Part shown: positions 34,857-38,381 of the stretch, piece by piece | Numbering within the stretch: the first letter of the stretch is position 1 | Layout of the letters: each line of letters starts with the position of its first letter | Assembly (NCBI GenBank): GCA_020403425.1 | Contig: JADBXR010000008.1 | Coordinates: 206,986 to 270,985, forward strand | Origin: Chitinophagaceae bacterium | GTDB lineage: Bacteria; Bacteroidota; Bacteroidia; Chitinophagales; Chitinophagaceae | DNA: 64,000 bases | Direction of reading: 5' to 3' | The notes under the pieces: generated by a model | What the model saw: only the letters and a program-made list of their open reading frames with translations | The model's database searches: none | What the model was told of the DNA's origin: nothing | Position numbers and translations under genes: made by a program

Positions 34857-34935
34857 GGCAATGATATACATTTTTACACCAAATTATTTGGAAGTTCAAA
34901 ATAATGAGCATATCTTTACACCATAACCGAAAGAT

Positions 34936-35856
34936 ATGTTTCCCGAATTTAAGAGCATTTTTGATTTACTCAAAGCATTTCCTACCGAACAATCTTGTAT
35001 TGACCATTTAGAAAGGTTAAGCTGGAACGGTGAGCCAGTCTCCCCGTTTGATGCAACCTCTAAGGTATACAAATGTGCAGGTAACAAATACAAGTGTAAG
35101 AACACGGGTAAATACTTCAATGTTCGAACAGGTTCTATCTTTGATAATACCAAAATACCGTTGCAAAAGTGGTTCTTAGCCTTATACGTCTTTTCTTCTC
35201 ATAAGAAGGGTATATCCTCTCACCAGTTGGCTAAAGACATTTCAGTAACCCAAAAATCAGCATGGTTCTTATTGCACCGTTTGCGCTATGCTTTTGACCA
35301 TCCTAATTTTCAGAATACATTGGGTAATATCGTAGAAGTTGATGAATCATTTTTGGGCGGGAAAGCAAAGAATAAGCACACTAACAAAAAGAAAAAAGAT
35401 CCGGTTACGGGTGGTACTTTGCATGAGCAACAACCCATTTTAGGAATGAAAGAAAGGAACGGAAATATAGTAGCAATAGTAGTTCCAAACAGGAATAAAG
35501 AAACAATCCTGCCTCTTATCCGTAATGTAGTTGAACAAGATAGCGTAGTAATGACGGATGAATATACTGCCTATAAGGATTTAAAGACTGATTACAGCCA
35601 CTTCACCGTTAACCATAGCGCAAAGGAATACGTTAATTACATGGCTCATACTAATGGGATTGAGAACTTTTGGAGCCATTTAAAGAGAGGTATTGATGGA
35701 ATTTACCATTGGTGCAGCAAGGAGCATTTACAAAGCTATGTGGACGAGTTTACGCTACGCTTTAATACCCGTGATTATAATACGCAAGGCCGATTTGATT
35801 TAATACTTTCGGCTGTAGCTAACAAGAGATTAACTTACAAAGCCTTAATTAAATAG
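34936..35856 (+). CDS. IS1595-family (ISXO2-like) transposase
   Basis: VEVDESFLGGKAKNKH, VMTDEYTAYKDL, HTNGIENFWSHLKRGIDGIYHWCSKEHLQSYVDEFTLRFN. Confidence 0.92.
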   Translation: MFPEFKSIFDLLKAFPTEQSCIDHLERLSWNGEPVSPFDATSKVYKCAGNKYKCKNTGKYFNVRTGSIFDNTKIPLQKWFLALYVFSSHKKGISSHQLAKDISVTQKSAWFLLHRLRYAFDHPNFQNTLGNIVEVDESFLGGKAKNKHTNKKKKDPVTGGTLHEQQPILGMKERNGNIVAIVVPNRNKETILPLIRNVVEQDSVVMTDEYTAYKDLKTDYSHFTVNHSAKEYVNYMAHTNGIENFWSHLKRGIDGIYHWCSKEHLQSYVDEFTLRFNTRDYNTQGRFDLILSAVANKRLTYKALIK

Positions 35857-35857
35857 T

Positions 35858-36793
35858 ATGAGCAAAATAGAGGTACAGGGAACGATTATAAATATCCTCA
35901 GCTTAAATAATGCAGACTATATTTCGTTGACAAATATGGTTTCTAATCAGGAGGATGGCTCTAAACTAATTGAAAAGTGGCTTACCAATAAGAACACTAT
36001 TGAGTTTTTAGGGATTTGGGAGCAATTAAACAATAAGGCTTTCAATACCCCCGAATTCGGGGGTATTATGAATGAGGCTGGAACTAATAGGTTCTATATG
36101 TCTGTAAAACAATGGGTTGCAAGGACTAATGCAATAGGAATAACAGCAAGAGCGGGTAGTCAAGGCGGCACATTTGCTCACCGGGATATTGCTTTCAACT
36201 TTGGATTATATATCAGTCCGATATTTAATTTGATACTGATAAAAGAGTTTCAAAGGTTAAAAGAAATTGAAAGTAACCAATATGGCGTGGAATGGAATTT
36301 CAAAAGAGTTCTTAGTAAAGCAAATTATCAAATACACACAAACGCTGTTAAAAATTACATTATCCCCAAGGCAGGATATGCACAAGCAAAAGAGTGGTTA
36401 CTATATGCTGACGAAGCCGATATGCTTAACATAGCCATATTTGGCACTACAGCCAAACAATGGCGTGATGCCAACCCTGAAAGAGTATTAAATGGAGAGA
36501 ATATTAGGGATATGGCAAGCATAAACGAATTGGCTATTTTGTCAAATTTAGAGAGCCTAAATTCAATCCTTATCAAAAACGGCTTATCAAAGAAAGACCG
36601 TTTTAAAATACTCCGAGAAACTGTCGTTGACCAAAAGAAAACACTTGATGGGATAGATATGGTAAAGACGTTGAAGAAAGAAAACAGCTCTACCTTTATT
36701 GATTATCAAAAAAAAAGTAACAGCCAGTCGGACTCTACATTTGATATTCACCTAAAGGGGTTATTAAAAGTACCCCCACCAAAAAAAAGCTAA
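35858..36793 (+). CDS. KilA-N domain-containing protein (transposon cargo)
   Basis: DYISLTNMV...EDGSKLIEKWLTNKNTIEFLGIWEQLNN, GGTFAHRDIAFNFGLYISPIFNLILIKEFQRLK. Confidence 0.85.
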   Translation: MSKIEVQGTIINILSLNNADYISLTNMVSNQEDGSKLIEKWLTNKNTIEFLGIWEQLNNKAFNTPEFGGIMNEAGTNRFYMSVKQWVARTNAIGITARAGSQGGTFAHRDIAFNFGLYISPIFNLILIKEFQRLKEIESNQYGVEWNFKRVLSKANYQIHTNAVKNYIIPKAGYAQAKEWLLYADEADMLNIAIFGTTAKQWRDANPERVLNGENIRDMASINELAILSNLESLNSILIKNGLSKKDRFKILRETVVDQKKTLDGIDMVKTLKKENSSTFIDYQKKSNSQSDSTFDIHLKGLLKVPPPKKS

Positions 36794-36877
36794 AATAATT
36801 AGTAATTTTATTGCTAATTTGCTTAGTGATTAATATCTTGTGCTTATTTATATAACTACAATAACTTTAAAAATAAT

Positions 36878-37822
36878 ATGACCGCTCTACAGATGAGAAA
36901 CGATGCATGGTTAACCTCTCCATTAATACCATCATGGGTAAGAGGCAGGGAAGTAAGTTTTGACCAACATAATACGCCATCAAGTGTTTCAAAATATTGT
37001 TGGGAATCATTTCAAAAAGTATTAAAAGCAGAAAAGAAAAAGATTGATAGTTATAAAATTATTGAACCAAGTGCAGGAACTGGTTCGTTTTATGACTTAC
37101 TGCCAGTTAAAAACAGAATAGGCATAGACATAGAAAGATTTAACGGTTACCATAAGGAGTATATTCAGGCTGATTTTCTCACATGGAATCCTACTCAGAA
37201 AGATCAAAAATATTTAGCTATTGGTAATCCCCCTTTTGGATATAGGGGTTGGCTTGCATTATCTTTCTTAAACCACGCAGCCGAATTTTGCGATTATGTA
37301 GGTTTTATATTACCCATGTCTTTTCAAAGCGAAGGAAAAGGAAGTCCTAAATATAGAGTACCGGGAATGACTTTAATCCACCATGAAATTTTACCTGATG
37401 GTTTATTTATTCAGGCGTCTGGTGATAAAACAGCAGTAAATACGTTATGGCAGATTTGGAAAAAAGGAGATGGGATGAAGTTGCCCGATTATAGTCTTTG
37501 TGATGAATATTTAGAGTTATTTACAGTTGATCAAAGAAAAGAAAGATTGTGCGGAGCGGAAAAAATGAAAGATTGTAAAATATTCCTACAAAGAACTTTT
37601 TATACAGATCCTCCTACCTTAGTAAACGACTTTTCAAAAGTAAAGTATTGTTGTGGGTATGGTTTTATAATTAAAAAAGATAAGAAAATAATCAAAAACC
37701 TATTAATGAACGCCGATTGGGTTAAATATAGTAATTTGGCTACACATAATTGCAGGCATATATCTATGTATCATATAAAGCAGTATTTGTTAGATAATTA
37801 TATATTGAAATCACCCAAATAA
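36878..37822 (+). CDS. class I SAM-dependent DNA methyltransferase, N6-adenine type (transposon cargo)
   Basis: IIEPSAGTGSFYDLLP (motif I), YLAIGNPPFGYRG (motif IV, NPPF). Confidence 0.82.
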   Translation: MTALQMRNDAWLTSPLIPSWVRGREVSFDQHNTPSSVSKYCWESFQKVLKAEKKKIDSYKIIEPSAGTGSFYDLLPVKNRIGIDIERFNGYHKEYIQADFLTWNPTQKDQKYLAIGNPPFGYRGWLALSFLNHAAEFCDYVGFILPMSFQSEGKGSPKYRVPGMTLIHHEILPDGLFIQASGDKTAVNTLWQIWKKGDGMKLPDYSLCDEYLELFTVDQRKERLCGAEKMKDCKIFLQRTFYTDPPTLVNDFSKVKYCCGYGFIIKKDKKIIKNLLMNADWVKYSNLATHNCRHISMYHIKQYLLDNYILKSPK

Positions 37823-37829
37823 TGTATTG

Positions 37830-38354
37830 ATGGTGGATTATATACAGCTATTCAAATCCATAGTTGAAAAACATAAAAACGATAAAAAATGGGATGCTGG
37901 CAGTTTTGTTGGTATTAAAAGCCTATCAAATACAAAGGTAGGAACCGTTGGGCAGGATTTTATCGAAGGGCTATGTGAAACCCTAAATATTCCTATAGAG
38001 TTCCCCGTAAATATTTTAAAGAAAAGATTAACTCAAAGCCCATGGGATTTAAAGATATTCGGTATTTCTTTTGAATTAAAAACTGCTACAGAAGATACTG
38101 GGGGCAAATTTCAGTTTAACCATATTCGGTATCATAGGAAATATGATGCTGTGCTTTGCTTGGGTGTAAGCCCAGATGAATTACTTTTTAATATTTATAG
38201 TAAGGCGAATATAGCAACTGGCAAAGCAGGAAAACTCGTCTCGATGGAAAAGGGAGGTAATGCTTCTTACAAGCTTACAAAATCAAAACACGAACTATTC
38301 CATATTGACGATTTTCAAGAAAAATTGATAAAATTTACAACCTCCTTTGAATAG
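37830..38354 (+). CDS. putative type II restriction endonuclease, PD-(D/E)XK-like (transposon cargo)
   Basis: SPWDLKIFGISFELKTATED fits a D-x(n)-E-x-K core; next to methyltransferase; stop codon lies inside the right TIR; ORF track starts 3 nt earlier at TTG. Confidence 0.6.
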   Translation: MVDYIQLFKSIVEKHKNDKKWDAGSFVGIKSLSNTKVGTVGQDFIEGLCETLNIPIEFPVNILKKRLTQSPWDLKIFGISFELKTATEDTGGKFQFNHIRYHRKYDAVLCLGVSPDELLFNIYSKANIATGKAGKLVSMEKGGNASYKLTKSKHELFHIDDFQEKLIKFTTSFE

Positions 38355-38381
38355 CTTGGTGTAAACATCTATATCATTGCC

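What the first reader, a model, noticed from the sequence alone, without database searches (positions are those of the whole stretch)
34857..38381. A complete restriction-modification cassette inside an IS1595-type transposon with intact TIRs and target duplication
Seen directly: GGCAATGATATAxATxTTTACACCAAxxTATT at both ends in inverted orientation (28/32 identical), bounded by perfect 8-bp ATTTTTTT duplications at 34849-34856 and 38382-38389. Inside are an ISXO2-like transposase, a KilA-N protein, an NPPF-type adenine methyltransferase and a PD-(D/E)XK-like endonuclease, all on the + strand. GG-starting TIRs and 8-bp AT-rich duplications fit the IS1595 family, which is known to include passenger-gene carriers. 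Inference: a mobile, self-selecting R-M unit in which one transposition event delivers transposase, a possible regulator, modification and restriction together. This is the best candidate for an under-described system here.
Basis: partly seen in the sequence, partly recalled or inferred. Interest (0 to 1): 0.9.

Follow-up and report, generated by a model that had tools for sequence, protein, structure and literature searches.

The report
Jumping gene carrying restriction-modification defence
A small bacterial transposon carries a complete DNA-cutting defence system; its relatives carry other anti-virus systems, and its transposase is paired with a DNA-binding protein whose body is interchangeable but whose tail matches the transposase, so it looks like a purpose-built carrier of immunity genes.

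Summary
Observation confirmed: 33-nt arms (88%), perfect 8-bp ATTTTTTT duplication, and four + strand genes: IS1595 transposase, KilA-N, NPPF methyltransferase, PD-(D/E)XK nuclease. A same-genus genome has the uninterrupted site. The methyltransferase-nuclease pair is one module (both in all 41 relatives whose contig spans the pair) and sits beside IS1595 transposases in bacteria of several phyla. Four further copies have TIRs plus exact 8-bp TSDs, two more have TIRs only. The tnp tree forces three separate placements.

The element belongs to a Bacteroidota clade in which all seven members with visible cargo carry R-M or abortive-infection/Shos genes. KilA-N is probably a transposition partner, not an R-M controller: its slot is filled by three mutually unrelated families (KilA-N, P63C, RhuM), all ending in the same short tail. 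Tail type follows the transposase, not the body (r=0.74, p=4e-4). Among KilA-N homologues elsewhere, only those beside IS1595 have the tail.

Unexpectedly, KilA-N codons 63-70 (36044-36067) form a perfect 24-bp palindrome, kept in 94 of 98 genes with strongly covarying arms.

Verdict: real, mobile in evolution, a new variant of cargo-carrying IS1595 transposons. Activity, methylation motif, tail binding and palindrome function are untested.

The parts
34849..34856 (.). Target-site duplication, left (ATTTTTTT)
   Evidence: empty site
34857..34888 (+). Left terminal inverted repeat GGCAATGATATACATTTTTACACCAAATTATT
34910..34923 (+). Subterminal repeat of the TIR core (ATATCTTTACACCA), possible second transposase site; role inferred
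   Evidence: read; a similar repeat is seen in L259
34936..35856 (+). IS1595-family DDE transposase, 306 aa
   Evidence: catalytic residues
35858..36793 (+). KilA-N (PDC-S22) transposase partner, 311 aa, starts 1 nt after the tnp stop
36044..36067 (.). Perfect 24-bp palindrome AATACCCCCGAATTCGGGGGTATT in the KilA-N coding sequence (NTPEFGGI); covaries across homologues; its 20-nt core (up to 3 mismatches) occurs once in the genome
36686..36790 (+). 35-aa C-terminal add-on with the tail STFDIHLKGLLKVPPPKKS; absent from KilA-N homologues not next to IS1595
   Evidence: low confidence in the model
36878..37822 (+). Type II adenine DNA methyltransferase (EPSAGTGSF, NPPFGY), 314 aa
37830..38354 (+). 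PD-(D/E)XK restriction endonuclease (PWD...ELK), 174 aa from ATG
38350..38381 (-). Right terminal inverted repeat; overlaps the end of the RE gene
38382..38389 (.). Target-site duplication, right (ATTTTTTT)

Best explanation
A 3525-bp IS1595-family unit transposon whose cargo is a complete two-gene type II R-M system. The transposase recognises the GGCAATGATATA... ends and inserts with an 8-bp duplication (structure shown; catalysis inferred from the family). The gene after tnp makes a transposase partner, not an R-M controller: an interchangeable DNA-binding body (KilA-N here, P63C or RhuM in sister elements) on a flexible linker ending in a short helix matched to the transposase clade. The likeliest role is that the tail docks on the cognate transposase and the body recruits or restrains it at particular DNA (inferred). 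The MTase/RE pair protects and restricts DNA as an ordinary type II system (inferred from families and conserved pairing). The whole belongs to a clade acting as a vector of anti-phage genes, and this same R-M module sits in three separate IS1595 lineages, most simply by repeated capture.
For: Ends, TSD and empty site. Gene families. MTase present with RE in 41 relatives; RE model (pLDDT 83) nearest the PD-(D/E)XK enzyme I-Ssp6803I. Other R-M copies beside IS1595; TIR + exact TSD in L017 TAATTTTT, L028 CATAGAAA, L034 TTTCATTA, L045 AAAAAAAA; L010 contig begins and ends exactly at its TIRs, L032 TIRs without TSD. Separate placements: tnp tree, 3 changes forced. Sister elements with the same TIR and defence cargo. 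Tail: (19 of 100 tnp-adjacent ORFs against 1 of 8974 others not downstream; held-out PWM 5/59 against 8/5853, p=1e-7), clade matching, only tnp-linked KilA-N proteins carry it. Co-contig tnp+MTase+RE relatives (shared contig lengths 14150 and 30455 for all three, 19641 for tnp+RE).
Against: Single copy in its genome, so no sign of recent activity there. No methylome, cleavage or transposition data. Free RhuM proteins often end in a related FDxxV..KK stretch, so the tail may have a broader or different ligand. The tail test rests on 13 long proteins, and tail and tnp could be linked by descent rather than contact. IS1595 copies of this R-M outside Bacteroidota manage without the partner.
Confidence: 0.72

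Rival explanations
1. KilA-N is the controller of the R-M genes (a C-protein-like regulator).
For: It lies directly upstream on the same strand, and PDC-S22 is filed in PADLOC as a defence candidate.
Against: None of the other loci with this MTase/RE pair matched it. The same slot holds P63C or RhuM with other cargo. It abuts tnp by 1 nt but is 84 nt from the MTase gene. Its tail follows tnp.
Confidence: 0.1
2. The shared tail binds a host protein or is a general motif of mobile-element DNA-binding proteins; it has nothing to do with the transposase.
For: Free RhuM proteins end in FDxxV/L..KK stretches; small ORFs of 41-61 aa with the motif are found in and near these elements.
Against: Tail type tracks transposase identity among proteins of different fold family (r=0.74, p=4e-4). 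In KilA-N proteins tail and neighbouring tnp occur together or not at all.
Confidence: 0.25
3. A relic: an ordinary IS1595 element with the R-M genes trapped between its ends once, no longer mobile and not a recurrent vector.
For: One copy in the genome; the R-M pair is rare in the family (3 of 299 genomes matched).
Against: All ORFs intact, TIRs 88%, TSD perfect; the same R-M in TIR-bounded elements elsewhere; sister elements with the same ends and other defence cargo.
Confidence: 0.1

Closest known systems
IS1595-family elements with passenger genes (tISCpe8, MTnSag1; cited in PMC5704250)
   Same: IS1595 DDE transposase, TIRs and passenger genes between them.
   Different: Those are described as mobilizable elements (tISCpe8 as a lincomycin-resistance element); here the cargo is R-M, with a KilA-N/P63C/RhuM partner carrying a transposase-matched tail and no relaxase.
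Tn7-like transposons with defence cargo (PMC8649781)
   Same: Transposon acting as a carrier of R-M and other immune systems.
   Different: Tn7-like elements use several transposition proteins (own knowledge); this one has a single DDE transposase plus one partner in 3.5 kb.
R-M systems as mobile units (reviewed in PMC4176335)
   Same: R-M genes moving between genomes; carriage on insertion sequences/transposons has been reported.
   Different: Here exact ends, duplication and empty site are seen, with the same module in several lineages of one transposase family.
PADLOC candidate PDC-S22 (KilA-N)
   Same: Window protein matches the model at 372 bits.
   Different: The tail is an add-on after the model's end; in this setting the protein looks like a transposition partner rather than a defence gene.

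Membership tests
IS1595 family | IS1595/ISXO2-like DDE transposase | tested here: met
   NF033547 217.8 bits, cut-off 75; PF12762 155 bits; D, D, E in place
IS1595 family | TIRs starting GG | tested here: met
   GGCAATGATATA... at both ends
IS1595 family | 8-bp target duplication | tested here: met
   ATTTTTTT both sides; exact 8-bp TSD in 67 of 114 surveyed relatives, a few with ends not starting GG
IS1595 family | Transposition activity | not testable with these tools
   needs an assay
Type II restriction-modification | Methyltransferase with SAM and catalytic motifs | tested here: met
   EPSAGTGSF and NPPFGY invariant or nearly so in 20 relatives; PADLOC MTase_II
Type II restriction-modification | Cognate nuclease gene beside it | tested here: met
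   Both present in 41 relatives; PD-(D/E)XK motif and fold
Type II restriction-modification | Both enzymes act on one DNA motif | not testable with these tools
   no REBASE or methylome on hand
R-M controller (C-protein) system | Regulator gene conserved with the R-M genes | tested here: not met
   KilA-N matched in no other locus of this R-M pair
PDC-S22 (PADLOC) | Match to the model | tested here: met
   4e-112, residues 2-276

The most novel reading that the evidence does not exclude
The KilA-N gene carries its own DNA target inside the codons of its DNA-binding domain: a 24-bp palindrome (AAWNNNNNCGAATTCGNNNNNWTT, coding [N/K]xxEFxx[I/F]) whose two arms change together across 98 genes from phage and bacterial elements, so protein specificity and site are inherited as one piece when the domain is swapped. 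In transposons, a clade-matched tail couples this self-addressed protein (or a P63C or RhuM substitute) to the transposase.
Probability: 0.3. Interest if true: 0.92.

Novelty: new variant of a known kind. Interest (0 to 1): 0.78.

Why it matters
It shows a very small, single-transposase route by which complete R-M and abortive-infection systems travel, and a modular partner protein whose tail offers a direct handle on how such transposases are controlled. The covarying coding palindrome in KilA-N genes, widespread in phage and bacterial elements, gives a concrete, testable lead to what these poorly understood proteins recognise.

Tried and rejected
R-M pair on plasmids or in phage records: no match for the nuclease. 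PDB sequence matches for MTase and RE: none meaningful. Palindrome as multi-site operator: no second copy (up to 3 mismatches, 20-nt core) in the genome and a second copy in only 1 of 89 loci against 5 for a control scan (the control scanned one strand, the test both). Palindrome as RNA hairpin: G-T pairs are rare at the variable positions although both-sided changes are many, so a DNA-level role is favoured. Palindrome as crossover point of the domain swap: it lies inside, not at the ends of, the swapped segment. Similar palindrome in RhuM or P63C genes: none. The contig-length coincidence at 4918 bp was dropped as likely chance. Whole-cargo PADLOC/Pfam counts show methyltransferases and a few nucleases among mostly unassigned genes in the wider IS1595 set, so the defence claim is limited to the near clade. 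Cargo of L149 cannot be judged (contig ends after the partner).

Full report
Observation. The inverted ends, the duplication and the four genes are as described. The TIR pair is unique in the genome and the element is single copy. In a same-genus genome, G167, the neighbouring glutamate-cysteine ligase product is 98% identical and the DNA runs on through the insertion point without the element. Element G+C is 34.8% against 48-49% around it.

R-M module. The nuclease (174 aa) has 780 relatives and the methyltransferase 1880 above threshold in the protein collection. Invariant residues include D74 and E83-L84-K85 in the nuclease, with P72 nearly invariant, and EPSAG / NPPFGY in the methyltransferase. 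The predicted nuclease fold (pLDDT 83) is closest to I-Ssp6803I, with other PD-(D/E)XK enzymes such as Hjc and DpnI lower in the list. In genome and viral collections 43 loci encode the nuclease; the 41 whose contig spans the pair all have the methyltransferase too. Hosts include Patescibacteria, an Omnitrophota-type MAG (Saelkia, placement from own knowledge), Alpha-, Beta- and Gammaproteobacteria, Acidimicrobiia, Spirochaetes and Bacteroidota. In the window's own family only 3 of 299 genomes have any methyltransferase match, one of them weak and broken.

The module rides in IS1595 elements repeatedly. Ten of these loci have an IS1595 transposase or a piece of one beside the pair. L017, L028, L034 and L045 show TIRs and exact, different 8-bp duplications, at 2.5-2.6 kb. 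The L010 contig is 2524 bp and starts and stops exactly at its TIRs, as expected if an assembler met the element in several places; L032 has TIRs without TSD. In L017 the transposase points the other way. In the transposase tree the six full-length R-M-bearing enzymes need three changes of label, forced by well-supported branches; the method's caveat is that three changes may be one gain and two losses.

The element's own clade. I surveyed 114 IS1595 transposases from Bacteroidota genomes and viral contigs. Sixty-seven have TIRs with an exact 8-bp duplication; 66 elements run from 2.1 to 7.7 kb, median 3.45 kb. Passenger genes are thus the rule here. Eight elements form a clade that includes the window (support 100/99) and nearly all share GGCAATRATATA ends. 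Cargo by PADLOC/Pfam: window, type II R-M; L148, methyltransferase fused to an Mrr-like domain; L150, C5-methyltransferase plus an unassigned 247-aa ORF in the nuclease position; L156, type I-like methyltransferase (contig end); L157, ShosA/ShosT and AbiD; L158, start of a type I-like methyltransferase (contig end); L259, type II methyltransferase and nuclease on the other strand, TIRs but unequal flanking 8-mers; L149, contig ends before cargo. So seven of seven with visible cargo carry defence genes. In the wider IS1595 set most cargo is unassigned.

The partner gene. Directly after tnp (gap -14 to +5 nt in these elements) comes KilA-N (window, L150, L156, L259, L162, L320), P63C (L148, L149, L161, L260, L261) or RhuM (L151, L157, L158) (L260 and L261 placed by similarity to the Pfam-scanned members). 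The three families do not match each other by phmmer, yet all end in FDxxLxxLLxVPPPxK or, in a second clade, FNxxLxxGLxxNPK. Smaller partners (41-142 aa) end the same way; seven of them scanned matched no Pfam family significantly. A PWM trained on near-clade tails finds 5 of 59 held-out tnp-adjacent ORFs and 8 of 5853 others (p=1e-7); the later profile finds 19 of 100 adjacent ORFs, 6 of 1463 further downstream and 1 of 8974 elsewhere, but part of its seed came from those adjacent ORFs. Among 13 long partners, tail similarity follows transposase identity in pairs of different fold family (r=0.74, permutation p=4e-4); same family with distant transposases gives 0.26, different family with close transposases 0.57. 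Among KilA-N homologues, none of the 29 in L102-L130 has tail or tnp, and of 80 in viral contigs only three have either, and those three have both (L302=L259, L318=L150, L320; L320's tail was recognised by eye, score 3.4). The tail region of the model has low confidence and holds one short helix. Caveat: free RhuM proteins often end in a related FD..KK stretch, though 0 of 30 reach the tail threshold.

Mechanism. Shown: anatomy, recurrence, modular partner, tail-transposase matching. Inferred: the transposase moves the unit; the partner's tail docks on it and its body directs or damps it; the R-M pair restricts foreign DNA and the element gains by protecting its host. Against KilA-N as R-M controller: no other locus of this R-M has it.

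An unlooked-for feature. Window 36044-36067, codons 63-70 of KilA-N, is a perfect 24-bp palindrome. Across 98 distinct KilA-N genes the homologous codons score 9 or more of 12 complementary pairs in 94 and 12 of 12 in 41, with many different arms; away from the site only 5 of about 77,000 windows reach 10. On 59 distinct 24-mers, 92.9% of cells pair, 157 cells change on both sides against 46 in shuffles and 24-48 with slid partners, and the covariation score is 0.535 against 0.141. Half-changed G-T pairs are few at the variable columns, which favours a DNA-level role. Arms follow the KilA-N domain (partial r 0.56) and not the C-terminal half (-0.08), and 25 gene pairs share 80% or more of the C-terminal half with unlike domains and palindromes. 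The 20-nt core (up to 3 mismatches) occurs once in the genome, and a second KilA-N gene in the same genome, without tail, has a different palindrome. RhuM and P63C genes show nothing comparable. Simplest reading: the protein's own binding site, carried inside its DNA-binding domain; a rival is upkeep by template-switch mutation in a palindrome. One literature search found no paper on it, and the library holds only open-licence papers.

Known context. R-M carriage by transposons is reported (PMC4176335), R-M is the commonest defence cargo of Tn7-like elements (PMC8649781), and IS1595 elements with passengers are known (PMC5704250). I found no description of the IS1595 defence-carrier clade, the tail-matched partner, or the palindrome in the papers searched; Siguier 2009, the founding IS1595 paper, was not read here.

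Noticed in passing
36044-36067 and KilA-N genes in L102-L130, L302-L381: 24-bp covarying palindrome inside KilA-N coding sequence, 41 of 98 genes perfect, found in viral-contig and bacterial copies.
   Followed up: partly
L109 versus L112 (whole KilA-N genes): Near-identical ends but an unlike central KilA-N domain: the DNA-binding domain appears to be swapped as a cassette together with its palindrome.
   Followed up: partly
L383 (G000:C24:70500-74500): Second KilA-N gene in the same genome, no tail, no transposase match, different palindrome AAAGTGGTGGAATTTGACCACTTT.
   Followed up: yes
L185, L186, L191, L199, L221, L245: In more distant IS1595 elements the slot after tnp holds a 69-73 aa protein that looks like a small HTH regulator (by eye, not scanned).
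   Followed up: no
L188, L193, L197, L211, L227 and others: Stand-alone 41-61 aa basic ORFs with the tail motif next to IS1595 transposases; no Pfam family in those scanned.
   Followed up: partly
L157:6219-10816: TIR-bounded element with both ShosA/ShosT-like genes and AbiD: two defence systems on one small transposon.
   Followed up: partly
L272-L301: Free RhuM proteins often end in an SDFDKxVK..KKKK stretch reminiscent of the tail.
   Followed up: partly
36797-36817: Imperfect inverted repeat ATTAGTAATTTTATTGCTAAT between KilA-N and the methyltransferase gene, a possible operator or promoter element.
   Followed up: no
38385-38407 and 38547-38569: 23-nt near-repeat (96%) just right of the insertion; a diverged form exists at the empty site of G167, so not made by the transposon.
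   Followed up: partly
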